Shown here: one piece after another, positions 1 to 10,063 of the stretch
Layout of the letters: each line of letters opens with the position of its first letter
How positions within the stretch are numbered: the stretch's first letter is position 1
Assembly: GCA_003647375.1 (NCBI GenBank)
Contig: QMMS01000157.1
Span: 1 to 10,132, forward strand
From: Deltaproteobacteria bacterium
GTDB taxonomy: Bacteria; Desulfobacterota; Desulfobacteria; Desulfobacterales; B30-G6
Direction of reading: 5' to 3'
DNA: 10,132 nt
The notes under the pieces: generated by a model
Databases searched by the model: none
Seen by the model: only the letters and a program-made list of their open reading frames with translations
Told to the model about the DNA's origin: nothing
Translations under genes and position numbers: made by a program

Positions 1-123
1 ACAAAATTTATCTTAAAGATATGGCCCTGTTCGGCATTACGGTCTCTTGGGAGCGAGTTTTTCACGTTCGCACAGGGATTATCCATCCGCGATACCACCA
101 ACCTTCTTTTGGGTTATAATCCC
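1..123 (-). repeat. Left copy of a ~115-bp inverted repeat flanking the Bat operon
   Basis: Reverse-complementing this stretch gives a near copy of 8881-9003. Positions 9-123 pair with 8881-8995 with only three differences, at 9, 21 and 111. Positions 1-8 contain two more differences, so the conserved core probably ends at 9, although the window edge prevents certainty. The strand is given so that the element reads GGGATTAT first in both copies. Internal structure includes GGGATTAT pairing with ATAATCCC and a terminal hairpin, tatctt-a-aagata, at 9-21. Bases 79-123 also encode the stop codon and last 14 residues of batE. No transposase gene lies beside it inside the window. It resembles no riboswitch or integron attC site that I can recognise. 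Confidence 0.93.
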
Positions 124-894
124 ATTTCTTTTTATGATCCGCTCTAAATGTTTCGATTCCGCCCAGCCTCTTTTATCTTTTGACAGCTGCAGCAGTGTCC
201 AATCGTCCTCAGTGCGTTCCAGACGCACAACCGTCCCTGCATGAAGTTTAAATAGAAGGGTATCTCTCGAATCAGGACCGGCCTGAACCACGACCTCCTC
301 CGACAAAACCACAGCACGGTTATCGGTTGCCCACGCGTACCACTTCAACGTGACGGCGCATACACCGACACTGATAACGATGGTCAGGAAAATTGAGAGG
401 TAATATGTCCATTCGGTTTTTTTATAGAGTCTTATACAGAGAAGAGAAAAGAACAGGACGTTCAAGAGAATAAACGCGAAAAAGGTCTCATACCGGTTGA
501 GGCCACCGAGGCCCAGAAGGCTGTTTAAGGAAGACGTCTGCAAATCAATTGAGGCATCCTGGGCCTGGTTTCTTGCATGGGAAAGATTAAAAGAGAGATC
601 GTCGTCCCGTGGCATCAAGAGAGATGCTCGTTCGTAGAAGAGGATGGCCCTTCCCAGATCCCCGAGTCGAAAATACGTATTGCCAAGGTTATAGTAAACC
701 TGTCCGTTTCCATGTCCGTTTTCAATAAGACGGATGTAGCCATCTGCAGCGTGTTGAAACTGATCGTTCTTATAGGCCTGGTTGGCTTCAAAAAACTGTT
801 CAACAAAAGACGTGCCGGTCTCTGCATGGGCTATGTTCAAAAAGCACACGAACACCAGTATCCCTATGGTTATGTGTCGGACCTGCCTGGTCAT
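79..894 (-). CDS. batE: BatE-like TPR / SH3-like membrane protein
   Basis: This 271-residue protein is the last gene of the Bat operon. Residues 1-24 look like a signal peptide ending in AHA. TPR-type helices occupy about 32-101, with a clear repeat around YYNLGNTYFRLGDLGRAILFY. Two membrane segments follow at about 136-154 and 163-184, then a C-terminal SH3-like domain at about 193-252 (VVLSEEVVVQAGPDSRDTLL, later GWAESKHLERI). That order is typical of BatE proteins, which are thought to act in an envelope complex with BatA, B and D; the molecular function is not established. The ATG overlaps the batD stop as ATGA (891-894), with AAGGGA upstream, so it is probably translationally coupled. 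The last 14 residues (258-271) are encoded by the flanking inverted repeat, so the native C-terminus was probably replaced or extended just after the SH3 domain. Confidence 0.88.
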   Translation of the reverse strand: MTRQVRHITIGILVFVCFLNIAHAETGTSFVEQFFEANQAYKNDQFQHAADGYIRLIENGHGNGQVYYNLGNTYFRLGDLGRAILFYERASLLMPRDDDLSFNLSHARNQAQDASIDLQTSSLNSLLGLGGLNRYETFFAFILLNVLFFSLLCIRLYKKTEWTYYLSIFLTIVISVGVCAVTLKWYAWATDNRAVVLSEEVVVQAGPDSRDTLLFKLHAGTVVRLERTEDDWTLLQLSKDKRGWAESKHLERIIKRNGIITQKKVGGIADG

Positions 895-2651
895 GAAATT
901 CCCTTTTCTATTACCCTGGCAAGACCCAACAGCTCGCCGACGGCATCTGAATCATTGAAATGATTACCCGCATATACCGCCGTTTCGAACCGCTGGACCA
1001 GTGAACGCATGTTTTTTGCTGTTTCAGCGTCCACGCCCTGGTCCCGCAAAATCTTTTCAGCATCATCAGCCGTCAGGGTGCCGATGGACAGGCTGCATCG
1101 ATCATTCAGATAATCCTTGAAGGCATTGATGAGATCCTCGTAGCTAATTTGATCTTTTTGGCAGCGTTTCTTTAAAGTGCTAAAGGCTTTTTTCGATATT
1201 GATTGGGCCAAACGTTCAGGCGATAGGCGTTGCACTCTCAATGCACCCAGGAGCATCAGATATATGAATAGGGGCCCCACCAGCACAAACCAGAGAACCC
1301 AGCCCATGGAAAGAAAACGAAAGGGAACGGACAGGTCCACAGCATCGGTATGAATCGGCAATATATCTTCCCCCAACTGCTGAATCTCTTTATTATTTGT
1401 CCTTCCGCCCGTATTGTTTTTGTCAGACAAGGAATTCAACCTTGCGACACTCTCTTCTGATTTGCCTGGCAGAACAGATAAATAATGTGTGGGGGTAACC
1501 AGGACATGGTATTTTTTTGTTTCAGGGTTAAAAAAACTCAAAGACAATAACGGGACTTTATATTCACCGGTATTTTCAGGAACCAAAGCCCATTTCATGG
1601 TTTTTGTCCCCCTAATCCCCTGACGGCTTTGCTCAGTTTCCAGAACCGGCTGGTCGCTGTACGTACGGGCAAAATCCATTTCAGGGAGATCCAAATCAGG
1701 TATGCGATTCACGGTACCCCGGCCTTTCACCTGAATGGTCAGGGTAGCGGACTCACCCGCTTTTAAACTGGAAGGCTCCAGCGTCGATGCCACCTGGAAC
1801 GTGCCCACAAGACCTGTGAAATCAGCCGGCCTGCCTTCTTTGGGAAGAGGATTCACATGTAAGTTGATGGGGTCGGTTGTTAATGTCAACGGCCTGTTTG
1901 ATGAGAAGCCGGAGAAAGAATCATTGAAAAAATTGCCAAGCCTGGAGCGGGAGCCGGCCTGGCGCACGGTCAACTTCAGCCGGGAAGGAGTGATGATGAA
2001 GTCGCCTTGCTTTGAAACCATCATGGCGTGACGGATTTCCAATACCTGATACGTACGACCTTCATCTGTGGATTGGTACTCGAGGGGTCGGCCGAGCTGA
2101 TGAAAGCTGACATATTCCATTTCCGGCAGACCCAGGGAGAGATTGCCAATGTTGACCCGGTAATAGAGCTTCAATGTGTAAAGAACTTGCTCATCCACAA
2201 AAATATCCTGTGATGAGATGGACGCTTGGATGAAAACCGGACCGCGATCTGAACTGCCTGGTTGTGATGCTGTTCGGACCACCAAGGATTGGCTCCCGCT
2301 CTCATATATTTTACCATCCACGTTTACCTTGACGGGCCCGATTTTAAATTCACCGGTTTTCCGGGGCTGGATAAAATAGGTGTAGTCGATGCCTGAATTG
2401 ACCTTGCCGTTGATGAATTCCATTCGGCTGGAGGTTCCTCCATTGGTTACCAGAAAGGATTCCAGGCCATGGAGAAAAGGCGGAGCATCGCTCTTGCGGG
2501 ATCCGGAAACATGAATTTCCATGCGCAGGGTGTCTGACAGGGTAGCTTCTACCCGATCGAGCCGAAGTGTGACAGTCACGTCGTCTGCCGCCCAAACAGT
2601 GAACATGGGTAATAAAAGGATACACAGGATACCTGCGATTGCCTTTATCAT
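891..2651 (-). CDS. batD: BatD-like protein (oxygen tolerance family)
   Basis: This 586-residue protein has the BatD plan. It starts with a signal peptide (residues 1-21, ending VWAA), followed by a long periplasmic part of Ig-like beta repeats with typical phrases such as RKTGEFKIGPVKVNVDGK and ENTGEYKVPLLSLSFFNPETKKY. One membrane segment lies at about 448-471, and a cytoplasmic helical tail of about 115 residues follows. The start is placed at 2651 because the ATG lies 1 nt after the preceding stop, has AAGGGA/GGAAGG 8-10 nt upstream and opens directly into the signal peptide. An in-frame ATG at 2693 would add 14 residues, overlap the upstream gene and lacks a ribosome-binding site. BatD is known as part of aerotolerance loci, probably an assembly or scaffold component; its biochemical role is unknown. 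The tail resembles that of the DUF4381-like protein encoded at 5555-6526. Confidence 0.9.
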   Translation of the reverse strand: MIKAIAGILCILLLPMFTVWAADDVTVTLRLDRVEATLSDTLRMEIHVSGSRKSDAPPFLHGLESFLVTNGGTSSRMEFINGKVNSGIDYTYFIQPRKTGEFKIGPVKVNVDGKIYESGSQSLVVRTASQPGSSDRGPVFIQASISSQDIFVDEQVLYTLKLYYRVNIGNLSLGLPEMEYVSFHQLGRPLEYQSTDEGRTYQVLEIRHAMMVSKQGDFIITPSRLKLTVRQAGSRSRLGNFFNDSFSGFSSNRPLTLTTDPINLHVNPLPKEGRPADFTGLVGTFQVASTLEPSSLKAGESATLTIQVKGRGTVNRIPDLDLPEMDFARTYSDQPVLETEQSRQGIRGTKTMKWALVPENTGEYKVPLLSLSFFNPETKKYHVLVTPTHYLSVLPGKSEESVARLNSLSDKNNTGGRTNNKEIQQLGEDILPIHTDAVDLSVPFRFLSMGWVLWFVLVGPLFIYLMLLGALRVQRLSPERLAQSISKKAFSTLKKRCQKDQISYEDLINAFKDYLNDRCSLSIGTLTADDAEKILRDQGVDAETAKNMRSLVQRFETAVYAGNHFNDSDAVGELLGLARVIEKGIS

Positions 2652-2652
2652 C

Positions 2653-4566
2653 TTACCAGTCCCTTCCGGAAAAAGAATTTTGGCGATTCTCATCAGATAA
2701 CATAAACCGCATTATTTCAGACGGATCTTCTTGAATGTTATCCAGTAACGCTTCGGCTTTTTTCCTGTCAATGTCAGACGGATTGTCACCTTTTAAGGGG
2801 TCGGTTGATTCTAACTCAGGCAAGGCCTCGCGTGGCTTTAGATCGCCGGAAAGCGTGTCTCCATCTATTGATTCAGGTGGTTTGTTTTGGGCCGATGCCT
2901 GATCCTCATTGTTGTTGGACTGCTCCTTCTCGTCATTCTTAGGTGTTTGATCATCTATTCTTTGACGATCTCCGTTTTTCTGAGGATCTTCATTTCCCTT
3001 GTCACTTTGTTGAGGTTCTTTGTCAGGCGGTTGTTCCCCCGGCTTCTGGTTGTCGGTTCCTTCCTGATCGTTTCCCTGAGGCGGCGTGTCGGATTGGGGT
3101 GTATCCGTCGGTTCCTGTTCTTGTTTCTCTTGCTCTTTTTTCAGAGCCCTTAAAGAAAGTTCAAGGTTGTAGCGCGCATCTTCACTGGCGGGTTGATCAG
3201 CAATCGCCTGTTTATAATACGTGGAGGCAGACGCATAATCGCCCTGCTTGAAAGCGGTATTACCCAGATTGAAAGCGGCTTTAAATCGTACATCCTCATT
3301 TTCTGTTCTTCTTATGACACTGGAAAAAGCTGCGGACGCTTCTTCGTATTGTCCATTCTGAAAGGCTGCACACCCACGATTGTAACGAAATCGGATATCT
3401 TTGGGATGATCCATATCCTGCTGGGAATAGGCTTGTTCCGCTTCCTCATACCGCCCCTGCTGATAGAGTTCATCCGGTGTTTCAGCTGCTTCGACCGGGG
3501 ATAAACAAAGCCAGGGGGTGAGTCCTATGGCCAATACAACGATAAAGAATGAAAATTTTCTTTTGGTATTTGTACGGCGCTTGCCATCGAGCAGTTCTTC
3601 GAAAAGCAGTAAAAAAAAAGCAGCCAGAATAAATAGATTGAAATGTTCTTCATATACCTTGATTTTCCCGCTTTTAAGGGTTTGGGCTTCCGTCTTTTGC
3701 TTGATGCCGTCAAAATAAAGGATATCCAGGTCCAGGTCTCCGGCCATGGAGCGGACATATCCGCCGCCGGTTTCCATTGCGATATCCTGTAAGGTCTTTT
3801 CATCCAGTTTGGACAGCACCAGGTTGCCGTTTTTATCCTTTTTAAACCCGCCCTGGTCTTGGCCGGCAGGTATGGGGCCACCGGATGGGTCGCCGATGCC
3901 GAAAACAAAAATTTTAATGCCTTGGTCTGCCGCTTTTCGGGCGGTTTCCAGGCCTCGGTTTTCATTATCCTCGCCATCGGTGATCAATAACATGACTTTG
4001 TCGGTTTCGTCCTTGGCATCAAAAGCGGTCAGTCCGGTTTCAATGGCAGCACCAAGATCGGTTCCCGGCACCGGGATGATACCTGGCTGGAGCACATTTA
4101 AAAACATTTCCAGGGCCGCATAATCGAGGGTGAGGGGGCATTGAACAAAGGCAGCACCTGCAAAAGCTGTCAGGCCCACCCGATCGCCTTCAACAACCTT
4201 GAGAAAATCGATGATCTCCCTTGTGGCACGCTCCAGGCGATTGGGTTTCACGTCTTCAACCATCATGCTTCGTGAAACATCCACCAACACCATGATGTCC
4301 ACTCCTTTGCGGCTCACTTCCTGGTATCGACTCCCCCAACGGGGACCGGCCAATGCAAAGATCAAGGTGCCTAAAGCAAAAAGGAGCAGCAGGGCCTTTA
4401 GAAAGCGTTTGCCTTTGTGGTCTTCGGGGGTGAGTCTTTTCAGCAGGGTTTGTTCGGCAAACCGGCCCATGGCCCGTTGTCGTCTGCGGTGCTGCACCAT
4501 GAGCACAAAAGCAATCAGAGGCATTGCCCAAAGAAAATGTAGGATCCATACATTTGCAAATGTCAC
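2653..4566 (-). CDS. batB: BatB-BatC fusion: membrane VWA protein with TPR and acidic tail
   Basis: This 637-residue protein joins two parts that are separate genes in Bacteroides. The BatB part has an N-terminal membrane segment (about 8-24), a second at about 56-73, and a von Willebrand A domain at about 88-290. The MIDAS metal site is complete: D96-x-S98-x-S100, T169 and D197 (LLITDGED). A membrane segment follows at about 308-325 and another at about 338-357, ending in a signal-like VEAAE. The BatC part then has TPR repeats at about 363-475, followed by a charged linker rich in Q, E, D, N and P to about 600. The start is GTG at 4566, overlapping the batA stop as GTGA and preceded by GAGGA at 7 nt spacing. 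The VWA domain probably binds partner proteins through a metal ion, with the TPR part outside the cytoplasm. The fusion is read directly from one uninterrupted frame. Confidence 0.9.
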   Translation of the reverse strand: MTFANVWILHFLWAMPLIAFVLMVQHRRRQRAMGRFAEQTLLKRLTPEDHKGKRFLKALLLLFALGTLIFALAGPRWGSRYQEVSRKGVDIMVLVDVSRSMMVEDVKPNRLERATREIIDFLKVVEGDRVGLTAFAGAAFVQCPLTLDYAALEMFLNVLQPGIIPVPGTDLGAAIETGLTAFDAKDETDKVMLLITDGEDNENRGLETARKAADQGIKIFVFGIGDPSGGPIPAGQDQGGFKKDKNGNLVLSKLDEKTLQDIAMETGGGYVRSMAGDLDLDILYFDGIKQKTEAQTLKSGKIKVYEEHFNLFILAAFFLLLFEELLDGKRRTNTKRKFSFFIVVLAIGLTPWLCLSPVEAAETPDELYQQGRYEEAEQAYSQQDMDHPKDIRFRYNRGCAAFQNGQYEEASAAFSSVIRRTENEDVRFKAAFNLGNTAFKQGDYASASTYYKQAIADQPASEDARYNLELSLRALKKEQEKQEQEPTDTPQSDTPPQGNDQEGTDNQKPGEQPPDKEPQQSDKGNEDPQKNGDRQRIDDQTPKNDEKEQSNNNEDQASAQNKPPESIDGDTLSGDLKPREALPELESTDPLKGDNPSDIDRKKAEALLDNIQEDPSEIMRFMLSDENRQNSFSGRDW

Positions 4567-5558
4567 GGAATCGTCCTCAATAACGTGGTGCGGATGGTGA
4601 TGTCCGCTGCCAACAAAAGTATTGCCGGTATAAGGAAAAAGGAATAGAGCTCCTTAAAATGGAAGAACTCTTTAACCTTGATTTCTGTTTTCTCCTGCTC
4701 ATCGATGATAGCGTATATTTCCTGCAGGCGATCCGTATCCGCAGCCCTGAAATATTGACCTTTTCCTGTGTCGGCAACCTTCATGAGGGTTTTTTCATCC
4801 AGGTCGACTTTTTGCCGAACGATCTTTGTACCAAAAAGCGTTTGAACCGGGAAGGGCGCAGGTTCTATCCCTCCCACCCCGATGGTGTATATTTTGATTC
4901 CCAGAGCTTGTACCGCATCTGCAGCATCTGCAGGGGTGAGCCCTTCTGTGGTTTGCCTGCCATCTGTTAACAGAATCAGAATTTTTGATTCAGCCTCAAG
5001 ATCTTTTAAGCGTTTCCCGCCTACGGCAATGGCATTTCCAATGGCTGTTTGATCGCCTGCCATACCGATTTCCATCCTTTTCACCAGATCCATCAAAAGG
5101 CCCTTGTCCAATGTCAGCGGGGACTGGGTAAATGCTTGGGTGCCAAAAACCACCAGGCCGATCCTGTCCATATCTCTTTTTTCAATGAAATCCGTGACCA
5201 CTTTTTTTACCGCAGCCAGGCGGGAGACCGGTTGATTGTCGATGGTAAAGTCCAGGGCTTGCATGGAGCCGGACGTGTCCAGGCACAGCATGATATCAAC
5301 CCCCGACGAATCAATATCCCGTGATACATTGTACAGCTGGGGACGGGCAGCGGCCAGAACCAGCAGGACAAGGCATCCTGTTCTTAATATCAAAGGGATA
5401 TGCCCTGCCAGTCGATGGCTGCCTCCGGAAAGTTGCGCGAGGGTACCGGTCATGGAATAGGTAATCCCCACTGGTTTACGGGTAAGGCGCCAGGCAAACC
5501 AGGCAAGAACCAATATCAAGAGGGTCAGCAACGCAGGATGAGCCAGACGAAATATCAC
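4563..5558 (-). CDS. batA: BatA-like membrane VWA protein
   Basis: This 331-residue protein has two N-terminal membrane segments (about 7-23 and 53-71), a von Willebrand A domain (about 87-285) and a C-terminal membrane segment (about 306-325). This is the standard BatA arrangement and places the VWA domain on one face of the inner membrane. The MIDAS residues are present: D94-T-S96-G-S98, T171 and D199 in LLTDGRQT. Such domains bind a divalent metal and a protein ligand. The partner is probably the MoxR ATPase encoded upstream, or BatB, which is inferred from family knowledge. The start is GTG at 5558, overlapping the previous stop as GTGA. A perfect AGGAGG sits 7 nt upstream (5566-5571), the best ribosome-binding site in the operon. 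No key residue is missing. Confidence 0.92.
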   Translation of the reverse strand: MIFRLAHPALLTLLILVLAWFAWRLTRKPVGITYSMTGTLAQLSGGSHRLAGHIPLILRTGCLVLLVLAAARPQLYNVSRDIDSSGVDIMLCLDTSGSMQALDFTIDNQPVSRLAAVKKVVTDFIEKRDMDRIGLVVFGTQAFTQSPLTLDKGLLMDLVKRMEIGMAGDQTAIGNAIAVGGKRLKDLEAESKILILLTDGRQTTEGLTPADAADAVQALGIKIYTIGVGGIEPAPFPVQTLFGTKIVRQKVDLDEKTLMKVADTGKGQYFRAADTDRLQEIYAIIDEQEKTEIKVKEFFHFKELYSFFLIPAILLLAADITIRTTLLRTIP

Positions 5559-6526
5559 TGTGGCACCTCCTGAATGGATGCGCTTTCCTGTGAACCGTTC
5601 GTCATCGGGCGGGTCTGTTGAATATAGGTTCGGGCCATCAGGATATCTTGATCTTTACGGTCCGGTGCCGGTACTGAATCGGAAAATTTGACCAGGTCGG
5701 CTTGCCTGAGCAATGGCAGAACCTTTTGATCATAGGGATCTGTTTTGATAAATCTTGCGATCTCTTCGGTTGTCATTTCGGCTGCCGGGAACCGGCGGAT
5801 AGATTCAATGTAGCGGCGTATGGTTTCTGAAAAAATAAAATAAAATGCTTTCACGTCCCCATTTTCAAACAAACCACTGGCAATCAGGTTGTCGATTTCC
5901 CTGTCGGCTTTTACATGAGGCGGGTCTTCCATTGTTGCCTTCATGTCACTTATGCACCGTTTTTTGCGCCACCATATAAAACCGGAAATCATGCCAAGTA
6001 GTATGATGGCCGCAAAAGTCCATACTAGATGCGTTAGCCATCTTGATTGGGTGGAAATAATGTCCTGAATCGGTCTCAGGGTAGCATCCTCGGGCTTTTC
6101 ACCCAGGTTGGACAAAATTGTGATGGTAATGGGGTCTGTAGCCACCTGTTGTTCATTCTTTTGATGGTCAATATACGTGAGACTGAAGGGACCCAGGTCA
6201 AACGATTCCAGTTGATCAACAAGAAATCGGAAATTTATTTCATTGGGTTCTGTTTTCTGCTCAATGATGGTCAAGGCTTCAAGGCCGTCGACACCGCCGC
6301 TCTCAGGTAGTTTGGCATCCTCGGGAATCTCAACCATCAAGGTCACCCATAACAAGTCACCGACACTGGCAGTATTATTTTCAACGGATGCAGACAGTGT
6401 CGGCAGGGAACTTGTTTCTGCTGTCTCGGACCATGTCGGCCCGGACCAAAGAAGGAAACAGACCAGTGCCCAAAGGAGAAGCAGGTTTTTTCGAGAGTAT
6501 GTAGGATTCATTGAAAACAGACTCAC
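5555..6526 (-). CDS. DUF4381/BatD-like single-pass membrane protein
   Basis: This 323-residue protein lies between the DUF58 and BatA genes, a slot often filled by DUF4381-type proteins in proteobacterial Bat-like operons. It has an N-terminal hydrophobic segment (about 14-30) that fits a signal peptide. A beta-rich periplasmic domain of about 120 residues (ASVENNTASVGDLLWVTL, later FDLGPFSLTYID) recalls one Ig-like BatD repeat. One membrane segment lies at about 166-187 and ends in WWRKKR, followed by a cytoplasmic helical tail containing RRYIESIRRFPAAEMTTEEI. The start chosen is GTG at 6526, overlapping the DUF58 stop as GTGA, because AAGGAG lies 9 nt upstream (6536-6541). An ATG at 6511, five codons in, is a weaker alternative. 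The function is not established; a structural partner of BatA/BatB is the likely role. Family assignment rests on position, topology and tail pattern. Confidence 0.75.
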   Translation of the reverse strand: MSLFSMNPTYSRKNLLLLWALVCFLLWSGPTWSETAETSSLPTLSASVENNTASVGDLLWVTLMVEIPEDAKLPESGGVDGLEALTIIEQKTEPNEINFRFLVDQLESFDLGPFSLTYIDHQKNEQQVATDPITITILSNLGEKPEDATLRPIQDIISTQSRWLTHLVWTFAAIILLGMISGFIWWRKKRCISDMKATMEDPPHVKADREIDNLIASGLFENGDVKAFYFIFSETIRRYIESIRRFPAAEMTTEEIARFIKTDPYDQKVLPLLRQADLVKFSDSVPAPDRKDQDILMARTYIQQTRPMTNGSQESASIQEVPQ

Positions 6527-7398
6527 CGACGCTTTCTCCTTTTATCAAACAACCGGACGAGCGGCTCGGAAACCGAGCCGTCTGTTTGAATGTCCACCAG
6601 ATCCACCCCGGTTTTGCTAAGCAGATTTGTGAGACGTGCCTGTTGCGCCTGCCGATGGATTCGCCATTTTTCCCTTAACGCTTTGCTACGGGTGTTCAGC
6701 AGCGCCACACGGTTTGTTTCCGGATCGGTCAGATAGACCAGACCCACATCCGGCAAGGTTTTTTCTGAAGGGTCTGATATGCGGATCACGGACAGGTCAT
6801 GCTTGCGGGATGCAATGCCGAATGGGAGCTCAAACCCCATATCCATACAATCGGATACGAGAAAAACAATGGCATGGCGTTTTACCACCCGATTCAGATA
6901 ATCCAAAGCGCCTTTGATGTCGGTTCCCAGGTCAGAAGGCTCATAGGTAAAGATCTCTTTGATGAGGGTCCAGACATGAGCGGCGCCTTTTTTAGGCGGT
7001 ATATATTTTTCTACCTTGGAGCTGAACAGGATGGCGCCCACTTTATCGTTGGTTCGAATAGCGAGGAAGGCCAGCATCCCTGCCGTTTCGGCCAATAATT
7101 CGCGCTTGAATTTCTTTTTTGTACCGAATGATTGGGAACCTGATAAATCCAGTAAAAACATTACGGTAAGCTCTCGTTCTTCATGGAAAACTTTAATGTA
7201 GGGATGCCCGAACCGGGCTGAAACATTCCAGTCGATGGTGCGAACATCGTCGCCGGGTTGGTATTCCCGAACTTCGGTGAACTCCAACCCCTGTCCCTTG
7301 AATGCGCTTTCATATTGCCCGGCAAACAGGTCGTTGGCCAGGTGTCTGGTTTTGAAATGAAAGCCTTGAATTTTTTTCAGCAAGTCGTTGGATAGCAT
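6523..7398 (-). CDS. DUF58 domain protein
   Basis: This 291-residue protein carries the DUF58 signature at about 37-61 (GLEFTEVREYQPGDDVRTID, then WNVSAR). It is followed by a VWA-like fold with DLSGS at 84-88 and a later acidic LVSDCMD strand. There is no signal peptide or membrane segment, so it should be cytoplasmic. DUF58 proteins almost always accompany MoxR ATPases and membrane VWA proteins, and are thought to be adaptors or clients; the exact activity is unknown. The ATG at 7398 has only a weak GAG-type ribosome-binding site, unlike the downstream genes. This may reflect the insertion of repeat material just upstream, which separates it from moxR by 348 bp. Downstream it overlaps the next gene by 4 bp (GTGA at 6523-6526). 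The length and motif order are normal for the family. Confidence 0.93.
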   Translation of the reverse strand: MLSNDLLKKIQGFHFKTRHLANDLFAGQYESAFKGQGLEFTEVREYQPGDDVRTIDWNVSARFGHPYIKVFHEERELTVMFLLDLSGSQSFGTKKKFKRELLAETAGMLAFLAIRTNDKVGAILFSSKVEKYIPPKKGAAHVWTLIKEIFTYEPSDLGTDIKGALDYLNRVVKRHAIVFLVSDCMDMGFELPFGIASRKHDLSVIRISDPSEKTLPDVGLVYLTDPETNRVALLNTRSKALREKWRIHRQAQQARLTNLLSKTGVDLVDIQTDGSVSEPLVRLFDKRRKRR

Positions 7399-7472
7399 TG
7401 TAGCTCTATTATTTCATGAAAAATTTCAAGCCAAATAGCAAAATAGGCTCATCTTCCAATTGATTGGGAGAA

Positions 7473-7508
7473 AGGGTTCCAGGGGTCCAGGATTCAAGGG
7501 TTCAAGTG
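7473..7508 (+). repeat. Left arm of inverted repeat around the four-helix-bundle remnant
   Basis: This arm contains TTCCAGGGGTC and AAGGGTTCAAGTG. Its reverse complement matches 7700-7727 at 26 of 28 positions once an extra 8 bases in this arm are skipped. Short 'ccaggggtc / caagggttc' repeats of this style are common between genes in Desulfobacterales-type genomes, as far as I recall. Confidence 0.8.
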
Positions 7509-7512
7509 TTTG

Positions 7513-7669
7513 TTTCCCAGCGATAGGTCGCTTTATCCCATACCCTCGACGGGTTTGATGGCTATGGGAAAAAGCATATCTTCTTATTTTTTGGCTCAAA
7601 CCGATCATTTCCTCTGTAGGAAAACGTTTCATTTCTATATATGCGAACAGTTAACTCTTTACAATTTTA
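7513..7669 (-). pseudogene. Remnant of a four-helix-bundle (23S rRNA intervening-protein family) gene
   Basis: On the minus strand, RFPTEEMIGLSQKIRR (from 7626) matches the hallmark core of four-helix-bundle/23S rRNA-IVP proteins, usually of the form RFPKEE-GLTSQIRRA. Just upstream, in a different frame, 7660-7634 reads KELTVRIYR, which fits the helix that normally precedes this core. After the core, ...AFSHSHQTRRGYG is what the usual SIPSNIAEGYG becomes with a local frame slip and substitutions. There is an in-frame TAA at 7669-7667, and the C-terminal half of the family (about 60 residues) is missing. The reading frame continues into the flanking repeat arm. I read it as a decayed and truncated gene, not an expressed protein. 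An open frame 7632-7426 exists, but only its first 40 or so codons derive from the family. These small proteins are also found in 23S rRNA intervening sequences; their function is unclear. Confidence 0.72.
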
Positions 7670-7699
7670 AGCTTTGAGCGCTGATGCCACACTTTGTAT

Positions 7700-7727
7700 C
7701 ACTCGAACCCTTGACCCCTGGAATCCT
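7700..7727 (-). repeat. Right arm of inverted repeat around the four-helix-bundle remnant
   Basis: This is the inverted partner of 7473-7508, with two mismatches over 28 aligned bases and an 8-base gap. The two arms enclose about 190 bp that contain the remnant gene. Together they occupy most of the moxR-DUF58 gap. Confidence 0.8.
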
Positions 7728-7746
7728 TCGTTTAAATATGTTCGGG

Positions 7747-8727
7747 CTATGGAACCTCGATCCGCTCCAACAGTTCATGTATGATATTGTCTGTGGTGCG
7801 TCCCTCCGCTTCTGCTTCGTAACTTAAAATGATGCGGTGTCTGAACACTTCCGGTGCCATGGATTTGACGTCCTGTGGGGTCACATAGCCACGCCCGTTC
7901 AAAAATGCCTGCGCTCTGGCGGCAGCTTCAAGCCAGATCGATGCCCGTGGTGACGCTCCGTAACTGATCATGGATCCGATATCCATGCCGAATTCATCAG
8001 GATTTCTGGTGGCTTGTGTTAAGCGAACAATATAATCCACCAGCCTGTCTTCCATGTGAATAACGTGCAGGGTTTTCCGGGCTGATTTGAGGGAAGAGAT
8101 ACTCACTACACTGGTGGCATTGTTGTCAGCGCCGGAACGGATTCGTTTGACGATCTCTTTTTCTTCCTCTGCCGAAGGGTAATCCACTTTAATTTTCATC
8201 ATGAAACGGTCGATCTGGGCCTCGGGAAGCGGATAGGTTCCTTCCTGCTCGATGGGGTTCTGTGTGGCCATCACCAGGAAAGGGTCATCGAGCTTAAAGG
8301 TTGTGTCCCGAATCGTGACCTGGTGTTCCTGCATGGCTTCGAGCAAGGCACTCTGTACTTTGGCGGGAGCACGGTTGATCTCATCCGCTAAAATAATATT
8401 GTTAAATATCGGTCCTTTATTTACCTCGAAGGAACCGTTGTCCGGCCGGTAAATCTGGGTTCCGATAATATCTGCAGGAAGGAGATCCGGCGTAAATTGG
8501 ATTCGTTTAAAAGACGTATCGATGGTTTGGGCCATTGCTTTGACTGCGGTGGTTTTGGCGAGCCCCGGCAGGCCTTCCAACAGCAGATGGCCTTCGCAGA
8601 GCAAGCCGATGAGCATTCGGTTTATCAGCCCTGTTTGGCCGACAATGACCTTTTCGATTTCAGCGACTATCTGCCTGATAGATACACTCTCTTTTTCAAC
8701 TTGATGTGTAATTTCCTTGATATCCAT
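7747..8727 (-). CDS. moxR: MoxR-family AAA+ ATPase
   Basis: This 326-residue cytoplasmic ATPase has every AAA+ motif of the MoxR family: Walker A GLPGLAKT at 52-59, Walker B IILADE with D115/E116, sensor 1 in ATQNP (N157), the arginine-finger region EAQIDRF (R174) and sensor 2 in GASPRA (R261). The phrases YPLPEAQIDRF and GTYPLPEAQ are diagnostic for MoxR. MoxR proteins are thought to be chaperone-like ATPases that assemble or activate VWA-domain proteins, here probably BatA and BatB. The start is placed at the ATG at 8727 because AGGAG (8739-8743) precedes it. A GTG at 8763 would add 12 residues with no ribosome-binding site. It is the first gene of the operon, behind a promoter-like sequence. 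Unlike all later junctions it is not coupled to the next gene, because a 348-bp repeat-bearing gap follows. Confidence 0.95.
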   Translation of the reverse strand: MDIKEITHQVEKESVSIRQIVAEIEKVIVGQTGLINRMLIGLLCEGHLLLEGLPGLAKTTAVKAMAQTIDTSFKRIQFTPDLLPADIIGTQIYRPDNGSFEVNKGPIFNNIILADEINRAPAKVQSALLEAMQEHQVTIRDTTFKLDDPFLVMATQNPIEQEGTYPLPEAQIDRFMMKIKVDYPSAEEEKEIVKRIRSGADNNATSVVSISSLKSARKTLHVIHMEDRLVDYIVRLTQATRNPDEFGMDIGSMISYGASPRASIWLEAAARAQAFLNGRGYVTPQDVKSMAPEVFRHRIILSYEAEAEGRTTDNIIHELLERIEVP

Positions 8728-8738
8728 ACAAACAATAT

Positions 8739-8743
8739 CTCCT
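8739..8743 (-). promoter_or_regulatory. Ribosome-binding site that sets the moxR start
   Basis: AGGAG on the minus strand, 11 nt before the ATG at 8727. It decides in favour of this ATG over the in-frame GTG at 8763, which has only AT-rich sequence before it. The spacing is slightly long. Confidence 0.6.
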
Positions 8744-8801
8744 GTAGAGGTTACCTGTTCCACCTATTTATTCGATCGGGTTCATTTTTTTGTGCAACAA
8801 T

Positions 8802-8829
8802 AATTTAAAACATGATTTGATATGGTCAA
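8802..8829 (-). promoter_or_regulatory. Candidate sigma-70 promoter of the Bat operon
   Basis: The minus strand reads TTGACC (8829-8824), a 16-nt spacer, then TAAATT (8807-8802). The -35 matches five of six consensus bases, the -10 four of six. A start near 8795 would leave a leader of about 70 nt before moxR. The surrounding 110 bp is AT-rich and lies between the right inverted repeat and moxR, so the promoter is inside the region bounded by the repeats. No operator palindrome was recognised. Confidence 0.4.
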
Positions 8830-8880
8830 GAGTTTACATAAGAATATGATAGATTTGGTTTTCAGACAACATTTTTGAAC

Positions 8881-8995
8881 GGGATTATAACCTAAAAGAA
8901 GGTTGGTGGTATCGCGGATGGATAATCCCTGTGCGAACGTGAAAAACTCGCTCCCAAGAGACCGTAATGCCGAACAGGGCCACATCTTTAAGATG
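8881..8995 (+). repeat. Right copy of the ~115-bp inverted repeat flanking the Bat operon
   Basis: This matches the reverse complement of 9-123 at 112 of 115 positions; similarity continues more weakly to 9003. Pairings visible on this strand are GGGATTAT (8881-8888) with ATAATCCC (8922-8929), AACCT (8889-8893) with AGGTT (8900-8904), CCCTGT (8927-8932) with ACAGGG (8974-8979), and CATCTT (8983-8988) with AAGATG (8990-8995) around one base. The first and third pairings share CCC at 8927-8929, so they cannot form together. This copy lies upstream of the moxR promoter and does not overlap a recognised gene. It has TAA where the left copy has the CAA codon of batE. Confidence 0.93.
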
Positions 8996-9152
8996 AATCT
9001 CGTTTTTGAACATAGCTCACCCTTTCAATTTATCCAGATTTAATCATATCTTGTGGTTTTAATACTTTCCTGACATATAGTCTGTAAAGGGGGTTATAGA
9101 CGAGCTGTTACCGTCAATATATTAACCCGGCGACTAAATAGCCAACCCCGTT
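8996..9152. other. AT-rich intergenic sequence, no gene seen
   Basis: No open frame with a ribosome-binding site or recognisable motif was found. The only notable feature is a weak inverted pair, GGGTTA (9091-9096) with TAACCC (9123-9128). With the REP-like element that follows, it makes up the 354-bp gene-free stretch before the lipoprotein gene. Confidence 0.5.
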
Positions 9153-9349: not shown

Positions 9350-9856
9350 ATGAATACGTTAAATCGATTACGGGTAACTTGTTCCACAGGGTTATTTTTG
9401 TTTTTTTTATTGGTTGCCGTTGTTTTTATGGCGAGCTGTGTCGGGTCTGGAAACTACGGACGGCTTTTTCCTAGCGATAATGTAAAAAAGTCATTTGAAA
9501 CTTACCAGTTACCGCCGAATCACACTTACTATTATAGTGGACCGGATGCTTTCCCGAGAGCTATTATCGGGATTCAAAATGAGTATCACCTCGAATCAAA
9601 ATTTTGGAAACCGGTTGATCTTACGAAGACCCAACTGAAAAGATGGTTAGAAATGGGGGGCCGTTCAAGGGATGACTATTATCCAAATAAAAACGGCTCA
9701 GATATACTCGCTCCTGACGGTGGGAAAATAGGTGTCTGGTATGCGGTGAAAAACTGGAAGGACAGGGCAACGGTGAAAATGATTGATGACAAAACAGTTA
9801 ATGTCAGCCCCCCGATAAAGTACAGTAGCGGACAGGAAAGGAAGATGATCCCCTAA
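9350..9856 (+). CDS. Predicted small lipoprotein of unknown function
   Basis: This 168-residue protein starts at an ATG with AGGAG 6 nt upstream (9339-9343). Residues 12-27 are strongly hydrophobic and end in MASC, so C30 is a plausible lipobox cysteine; it would then be an exported lipoprotein anchored in the envelope. The mature part has an aromatic-rich opening (YQLPPNHTYYYSGPDAFPRA), followed by IIGIQNEYHLESKFWKPVDL and, later, GSDILAPDGGKIGVWYAVKN and VKMIDDKTVNVSPP. The second half looks beta-rich. I recall uncharacterised proteins of this pattern in Desulfobacterota but cannot name a family or role. It is on the opposite strand from the Bat operon, separated from it by repeats, so a functional link is not implied. 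A nested palindromic element follows 4 bp after its stop. Confidence 0.75.
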   Translation: MNTLNRLRVTCSTGLFLFFLLVAVVFMASCVGSGNYGRLFPSDNVKKSFETYQLPPNHTYYYSGPDAFPRAIIGIQNEYHLESKFWKPVDLTKTQLKRWLEMGGRSRDDYYPNKNGSDILAPDGGKIGVWYAVKNWKDRATVKMIDDKTVNVSPPIKYSSGQERKMIP

Positions 9857-9860
9857 AATT

Positions 9861-10021
9861 GATGGTCTCGCAAAAAGTCAGAAAAGCTACTTTTTACGAG
9901 AGTATTTTGTATTTAGTGTTTAGTGTTTTGGGGTCTAATAGCTTGGTATATCAGCATTTTTTCCATACTAAATCCAAAATACTAAACACTTGATGAATTC
10001 GACTTTTTACGAATTCATCAA
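9861..10021. repeat. Nested palindromic intergenic element
   Basis: Three layers of inverted symmetry are visible. The outer arms 9861-9879 and 10001-10019 match at 15 of 19 positions when one is reverse-complemented. The middle arms 9915-9931 and 9974-9990 match at 16 of 17. Each end is itself a hairpin: 9866-9878 with 9889-9901 (one mismatch, 10-nt loop), and 9990-10001 with 10010-10021 (perfect 12 bp, 8-nt loop ACTTTTTA). The core ACTTTTTACGA occurs in both hairpins. No open frame is inside. This looks like a small non-autonomous repeat of the MITE/REP kind. Confidence 0.78.
9866..9901 (+). terminator. Hairpin after the lipoprotein gene, possible terminator
   Basis: TCTCGCAAAAAGT pairs with ACTTTTTACGAGA apart from one mismatch, 9 bp after the stop at 9856. 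The bases that follow (GTATTTTGTATTT) are T-rich but not a clean T run. It is also part of the repeat element, so terminator activity is only a possibility. Confidence 0.3.
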
Positions 10022-10063
10022 AATTGGAAAACGTGATAAGCTCTCAACAAACAAAGGAACAAC

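What the first reader, a model, noticed from the sequence alone, without database searches (positions are those of the whole stretch)
1..9003. Entire Bat operon is bracketed by near-identical ~115-bp inverted repeats
Positions 9-123 and 8881-8995 are inverted copies with three differences in 115 bp. Between them lie exactly moxR to batE and the candidate promoter. Two such copies could mark the ends of a mobile or once-mobile unit. They could instead be a dispersed structured repeat that inserted on both sides, or a substrate for recombination that inverts the 8.8-kb operon relative to its surroundings. The near identity implies recent duplication, gene conversion or strong constraint. No recombinase is visible in the window.
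Basis: partly seen in the sequence, partly recalled or inferred. Interest (0 to 1): 0.78.

Follow-up and report, generated by a model that had tools for sequence, protein, structure and literature searches.

The report
Half-copies of a mobile hairpin element
The two matching DNA stretches beside this group of genes look like separate insertions of a tiny jumping element rather than the ends of one jumping block, and longer relatives of that element in related bacteria carry a strongly conserved hairpin that matched no family in the RNA library searched.

Summary
The inverted repeats are real: 1-126 and 8878-9003 match at 120 of 126 bases. They do not look like ends of a mobile Bat operon. Each is a 123-bp miniature element. 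The right one (8880-9002) begins CGGGATTATAACC and is flanked by an 8-bp duplication, TTTTTGAA. The left one (2-124) overlaps batE and supplies its last 15 codons and stop. Their recognisable end repeats face the operon. Elements with this end are dispersed in related genomes, often with 8-bp A+T-rich duplications; the same ends flank an interrupted IS1595-family insertion sequence. No such end lies within 1 kb of other Bat operons (0 of 53 upstream, 0 of 49 downstream).

Unexpectedly, full-length relatives (about 265 bp) contain a conserved hairpin: 36 of 38 pairs show double changes among 64 sequences, internal loops are 92-100% invariant, and Rfam gave no match. It was found in 85 of 291 genomes of the order, 51 times in one chromosome, between different kinds of ends: four with well-supported 8- or 10-bp duplications, a fifth (4 bp) weaker. 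Mismatch counts place the fold on the strand opposite to the one modelled. The window copies hold one half only. Function unknown; a transcribed RNA is most likely.

The parts
2..124 (-). Left element: 123-bp half-copy; reads TGGGATTATAACCC...AATTTTG on the minus strand; outer flank cut by the window edge
   Evidence: 117/123 identical to the right element; end-repeat match with 1 mismatch at 102-124; weak model match, 12.7 bits, E 0.026
102..124 (-). End repeat of the left element, facing the operon
   Evidence: pattern CGGNNYKATAWMCMANAANAAGG, 1 mismatch
8880..9002 (+). Right element: 123-bp half-copy, CGGGATTATAACC...AATCTCG
   Evidence: model R1 match 8917-9124, 25.8 bits, E 5.9e-6, the second half poorly paired
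8880..8902 (+). End repeat of the right element, facing the operon
   Evidence: 1 mismatch to the family pattern
8872..8879 (.). Target-site duplication, inner copy (TTTTTGAA)
9003..9010 (.). Target-site duplication, outer copy (TTTTTGAA)
82..126 (-). Last 15 codons of batE (NGIITQKKVGGIADG), encoded by the left element except the first two bases of the first codon
   Evidence: the tail motifs searched occur in no other protein fetched; none of the 59 other homologues aligned has it
79..894 (-). batE (TPR, weak SH3-like)
891..2693 (-). batD
   Evidence: PF13584
2653..4566 (-). batB-like VWA + TPR gene
4563..5558 (-). batA-like VWA gene
5555..6526 (-). operon gene without a Pfam match
6523..7398 (-). 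DUF58 gene
   Evidence: PF01882
7747..8763 (-). moxR AAA ATPase
   Evidence: PF07726

Best explanation
The two arms are separate insertions of the same 123-bp non-autonomous mobile element (a MITE), probably moved in trans by an IS1595-family transposase that makes 8-bp A+T-rich target duplications. One copy inserted upstream of moxR. The other inserted at the 3' end of batE and now provides its stop codon and last 15 residues. Their inverted arrangement around the operon is coincidental. Shown: the right copy's duplication; the same end repeat around dispersed elements and around an IS1595 gene in relatives; its absence near other Bat operons. Inferred: which transposase acted in this host, and the left copy's duplication. 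The 123-bp form corresponds to one arm of a longer element whose two arms form a conserved hairpin, probably of a transcribed RNA; that hairpin core is found between several different kinds of transposon-like ends across the order.
For: TTTTTGAA at 8872-8879 and 9003-9010 abuts both ends of the right element. Of 41 distinct end-paired elements in related genomes, 19 have identical 8-bp flanks and 27 at least 7 of 8; swapped flanks give a mean of 0.76 identical, maximum 4 in 1000 draws. The same ends bound an 1100-bp sequence with PF12760 and PF12762 and duplication ATTTTTTA. A stricter form of the end pattern occurs exactly in 19 of 291 genomes sampled from the order; the looser form gives 66 sites in G005 against 0 for the reversed control. 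Near other Bat operons: 0 of 53 upstream and 0 of 49 downstream among 80 loci, of which 28 and 24 are from the 40 Desulfobacterota-like loci. The hairpin model hits 1 of 41 Bat-locus sources, 6 kb from moxR. Identity between copies within other genomes is 0.76-0.97, so 95% is not special. The closest BatE relative, P0219, ends KRTRDYNQ, which fits the end repeat read in another frame (back-translation is my inference).
Against: The far end of the window element (CGAGATTCATC read inward) does not match the family end repeat, so one end is atypical. For the left copy the single outside base visible is T where A would be expected. A chance 8/8 flank match is about 2% per element by the swap control, and the right boundary was chosen after seeing it. 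The IS1595 genes with matching ends are interrupted by a stop, and the second of them (L206) has flanks matching at only 3 of 8. No IS1595 gene was found in G001, G003, G004 or G006. Those of G002 and G005 show no convincing ends, though both lie near a contig end. The host genome is not held.
Confidence: 0.86

Rival explanations
1. The arms are the ends of a mobile or once-mobile unit carrying the whole Bat operon.
For: Near-identical inverted arms enclose the operon.
Against: The right arm has its own target duplication, so it inserted alone. The recognisable end repeats face inward. No transposase or recombinase among the genes of the window. Bat operons without the end repeat: 53 of 53 upstream and 49 of 49 downstream flanks examined.
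Confidence: 0.03
2. The arms serve as a homologous-recombination substrate that flips the 8.75-kb operon.
For: Long stretches of perfect identity between inverted arms would allow it in principle.
Against: No evidence for two orientations was available. The closest relative P0219 seems to keep the element at the same end of batE (inference).
Confidence: 0.06
3. For the wider family: the paired arms are kept alike only by DNA-level copying between palindrome arms, not by selection on a folded molecule.
For: Long inverted repeats in DNA can be homogenised by template switching (recalled), which also gives double changes.
Against: Internal loops that differ between the arms stay 92-100% invariant while median pairwise identity is 52%; arm copying would erase them. 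Mismatches are strand-asymmetric: on the strand opposite to the modelled one G.U outnumbers A.C 96 to 22, in 26 of 32 genomes, with 2 the other way and 4 ties.
Confidence: 0.25
4. The conserved hairpin acts as folded single-stranded DNA (recognised by a transposase, recombinase or replication factor) rather than as RNA.
For: It lies inside mobile elements; G.T is also a mild mismatch in DNA (recalled); neighbouring frames lie in all orientations around 34 copies.
Against: Duplications of 8 and 10 bp beside different ends suggest movement by several enzymes, so no single transposase explains the core; of 16 forms of 93-95 bp, too short to hold the core, 8 have identical 8-bp flanks, so the core is not needed for movement.
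Confidence: 0.25

Closest known systems
MITEs of the IS1595 insertion-sequence family
   Same: Short, no gene, end repeats shared with an IS1595-family element, 8-bp A+T-rich target duplications. ISApl4 of this family makes preferably A/T-rich 8-bp repeats (PMC12561309, passages seen).
   Different: One end of the window copies is atypical, and full-length relatives carry a conserved hairpin that also occurs between other kinds of ends.
Small repeated palindromes such as ERIC or Correia elements (recalled, not compared)
   Same: About 100-150 bp, dispersed imperfect palindromes.
   Different: Here target duplications and a matching insertion sequence are shown, and the full-length form is about 265 bp with invariant internal loops.
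Coxiella MITEs linked to protein and small-RNA evolution (PMC5896051; title and start of abstract in the listing only)
   Same: A MITE providing part of a protein and possibly an RNA.
   Different: Different host; sequences not compared; whether that paper describes one core shared by different ends was not checked.
Candidate structured bacterial RNAs found by comparative genomics (PMC2864571, two passages seen)
   Same: Covarying stems with conserved loops, the same kind of evidence.
   Different: Here the core is multicopy and mobile; no match to Rfam 15 in the window and 33 loci searched.

Membership tests
IS1595-family MITE | Terminal inverted repeats shared with an IS1595-family insertion sequence | tested here: inconclusive
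   Met for relatives (L184). In the window one end of each copy matches with 1 mismatch; the other end does not match the pattern.
IS1595-family MITE | 8-bp A+T-rich target-site duplication | tested here: met
   Right copy TTTTTGAA, 8 of 8; relatives 19 of 41 identical. Left copy not testable beyond one base, which does not fit.
IS1595-family MITE | No transposase gene inside | tested here: met
   123 bp; batE reads into the left copy.
IS1595-family MITE | Many copies dispersed in the host genome | not testable with these tools
   Host genome not held. Met in relatives G001, G002, G005.
IS1595-family MITE | A working transposase with these ends in the same genome | not testable with these tools
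   In relatives: interrupted genes in G251 and G154; IS1595 genes of G002 and G005 without convincing ends, both near a contig end.
Composite transposon carrying the operon | Insertion sequences at both ends and one duplication outside both | tested here: not met
   No transposase; the duplication flanks the right arm alone.
Invertible DNA switch | Both orientations present and a recombinase | not testable with these tools
   No reads available; no recombinase domain among the genes searched.
Any Rfam family, including c-di-GMP-I (GEMM) considered early | Covariance-model match | tested here: not met
   Window: none at E up to 5. 13 loci: one tRNA and three hits far below gathering score. 20 loci: two hits, best 36.2 bits against a cut-off of 149.
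Integron attC site | R and L boxes and association with an integrase | not tested
   Considered from recall only.

The most novel reading that the evidence does not exclude
A structured RNA of about 170-200 nt that matched no Rfam family, with covarying stems and near-invariant internal loops, is itself the conserved unit. It has been carried round genomes of one bacterial order inside miniature transposons with at least four, probably five, different kinds of ends (duplications of 8, 10 and perhaps 4 bp), more than one kind in a single chromosome. The repeats beside this Bat operon are half-copies of it.
Probability: 0.58. Interest if true: 0.82.

Novelty: new variant of a known kind. Interest (0 to 1): 0.6.

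Why it matters
For the Bat operon it argues against operon mobility and shows a mobile element rewriting the C-terminus of BatE. More widely, a conserved structure inside elements usually regarded as transposon debris, kept while the ends change, would mean that the hairpin rather than the transposon is what selection preserves. That is directly testable by transcript mapping in a bacterium that carries tens of copies.

Tried and rejected
Exact 20-mer of the repeat in viral and genome contigs: no hit. blastn in plasmids and phages: no hit. First guess of a c-di-GMP-I-like riboswitch: no Rfam match. ISL3 as source of the CGG...TATAACC ends: the PF01610 genes found in G004 and G006 show no such ends in the stretches held, the G004 one starting at a contig end. 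ISL3 as source of the GGTTCCTCGC ends in G020: its one PF01610 gene shows no such ends, so that label stays a recalled resemblance, as do ISAs1-like for CAGGG ends and IS5-like for YTAR. A cis-regulatory role: neighbouring open frames around 34 copies lie in all orientations (10 opposite/opposite, 9 same/same, 7 and 7 mixed, 1 with one neighbour only); 5 of the 34 lie inside an open frame of at least 80 codons (mechanical frames, not genes). Folding of the 123-bp form alone: 18 to 92 of 200 shuffles fold as well (z -0.1 to -1.3).

I gave the model only part of the copies held then, so the 32 genomes are a chosen sample. Of the first-pass BatE list 60 of 120 were aligned. An earlier count said 119 of 126; the correct count is 120.

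Full report
Observation. The operon between them is moxR, DUF58, a gene without Pfam match, two VWA genes, batD and batE, all on the minus strand. The host genome is not held, so copies were sought in relatives found through BatA (the best, L001, 88% identical).

What the arms are. The right element is bounded on both sides by TTTTTGAA: 8880-9002 (123 bp), repeat at 8872-8879 and 9003-9010. The left arm is the same 123-bp element at 2-124 on the other strand; one outside base is visible and does not fit a duplication. The genomes sampled from L001's family, itself included, all have matches to the repeat (4 of 4); L002's genome has 6 matches and L018's none. Aligning copies with flanks gave an end repeat, CGGNNYKATAWMCMANAANAAGG, that pairs with itself in elements of 58 to 267 bp, most often 93-95 and 265-266 bp. 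Over 41 distinct pairs, flanking 8-mers are identical in 19 and at least 7/8 in 27. Shifting the register by 1-3 bases gives 0 or 1 identical and at most 4 with 7/8. Swapping flanks gives a mean of 0.76 identical, maximum 4. These are target-site duplications; left flanks are 94% A+T.

Which transposase. In L184 the same ends enclose 1100 bp with an IS1595-family zinc ribbon and DDE domain (PF12760 E 3.6e-11; PF12762 E 2.1e-31) and duplication ATTTTTTA. A second, 1089-bp case (L206) has flanks matching at 3 of 8. Both genes contain a stop, so no working copy is shown. PF12762 was found in 7 of 13 genomes searched and in neither G001, G003, G004 nor G006. A/T-rich 8-bp duplications are reported for an IS1595-family member, ISApl4 (PMC12561309, passages).

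Link with the operon. The end pattern with up to 3 mismatches lies within 1 kb in 0 of 53 loci with at least 500 bp upstream of moxR and in 0 of 49 downstream of batE, out of 80 loci; 28 and 24 of these belong to the 40 Desulfobacterota-like loci, 25 and 25 to the rest. A covariance model of the full-length element hits 1 of 41 sources holding Bat loci (L219 overlaps L007): L001, 6 kb upstream of moxR. So the pairing around this operon is most likely incidental. The left copy does matter to batE: its last 15 residues are encoded almost wholly by the element. None of the 59 other homologues aligned has that tail (60 of the 120 listed were aligned, of 326 found). The nearest, P0219, ends KRTRDYNQ, which I read as the same end repeat in another frame (inference).

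The hidden structure. The 265-bp relatives are long imperfect palindromes. A sequence-only alignment of 16, with the structure predicted from it, gave 38 pairs, 21 with changes on both sides, covariation score 0.390 against 0.146 shuffled (0 of 500) and at most 0.103 when slid; the number of further pair types was no higher than in shuffles (260 of 500). A model of the core matched 85 of 291 genomes drawn from the order at E up to 0.001, with 8 candidates scored per genome and two of the 85 resting on weak matches near 3e-4. It matched 6 of 395 in a phylum sample, 4 of them already in the order sample; 0 of 38 genomes whose record titles name other groups or, in one case, only an uncultured bacterium; and 9 of 37 genomes of the related Bat loci, one weakly, with 51 separate places in the 6.84-Mb chromosome of L006. 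Among 65 aligned copies (64 distinct) from 32 genomes, 36 of 38 pairs have changes on both sides, score 0.651 against 0.163 shuffled and at most 0.120 slid, again with further pair types no higher than in shuffles (269 of 500); median pairwise identity is 52%. This alignment was fitted to the model, which favours the structure; the 16-sequence one was not. Loop positions AAACTC and CTCANACAG are 92-100% invariant apart from N.

Strand. On the modelled strand G.U pairs number 22 and A.C 96 of 2417 cells; on the opposite strand this becomes 96 G.U and 22 A.C. A.C exceeds G.U in 26 of 32 genomes, the reverse holds in 2, 4 are ties. The unfitted alignment shows 10 to 28 the same way. So the folded strand is probably the opposite one, where the loop reads CUGUNUGAG / CGAGUUU; the facing GA dinucleotides recall a kink-turn (recalled, not tested). 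A folded RNA is the simplest reading; folded DNA is not excluded.

Several vehicles. The core lies between different ends in different genomes. Besides the IS1595-type end: GGTTCCTCGC in G020 (8 copies: 8-bp flanks 8/8 in 4, 7/8 in 3, 2/8 in 1; mismatched pairings reach 7/8 in 0 of 56); CAGGGYAAACGC in G215 (4 copies: 9/10 in 3, 2/10 in 1; mismatched 0 of 12); GTAACCGTTTAGC in G059 (6 copies with that left end: at least 7/8 in 4; mismatched 0 of 30); and TTCTACTTTGTCACA in G059 (12 of 21 copies show both ends: 4/4 in 5, mismatched 10 of 132; at least 3/4 in 10, but mismatched 54 of 132, so this one is weaker). No two of the five ends are more alike than shuffled sequence over 31 bases, a test of little power; the last two share TTAGCC near the end. 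Only the first is tied to a transposase by sequence. Neighbouring frames around 34 copies lie in all orientations, against a cis-regulatory role. Rfam gave no match in the window and 33 loci. Searches of the paper library combining MITE, IS1595, structured RNA and Desulfobacter terms listed nothing that by title or start of abstract describes it; most subscription journals are not held, and I read no candidate in full.

Verdict. The finding as given resolves to two half-copies of a mobile element that happen to bracket the operon. The half-copies lack the second arm and cannot form the hairpin. The family they belong to is the interesting part: conserved structure inside miniature transposons, kept while the ends differ.

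Noticed in passing
82-126 (minus strand): A mobile element supplies the last 15 residues and the stop codon of BatE; the closest relative P0219 has a different tail that fits the same element in another frame.
   Followed up: partly
7472-7508 and 7700-7728: A second pair of inverted repeats (AAGGGTTCCAGGGGTCCAGGATTCAAG type) lies in the 348-bp gap between moxR and DUF58, a long gap for an operon.
   Followed up: no
6476-6513 and 9881-9918: Two 74%-alike copies of a stretch with TTTTTNCGAGAGTAT, one at the start of an operon gene, one downstream of the lipoprotein-like gene; 9989-10022 is terminator-like.
   Followed up: no
9350-9856 (plus strand): Small secreted or lipoprotein-like gene without Pfam match; 97 relatives found, one 98% identical on contigs up to 20.7 kb.
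   Followed up: partly
L321 (G059:C1:6475380-6476380): Two hairpin model matches lie 28 bases apart on the same strand (6475673-6475844 and 6475873-6476078).
   Followed up: no
L118 / L149 (G005:C3:64497-64856): Two 93-bp elements with the same ends lie 174 bp apart, each with its own 8-bp duplication (8/8 and 7/8).
   Followed up: no
L190 1-1315: A frame with a TOTE-conflict-system primase domain (PF22548, 1-801) overlaps an IS1595 transposase frame (626-1279) that is followed by an IS1595-type end at 1293-1315.
   Followed up: no
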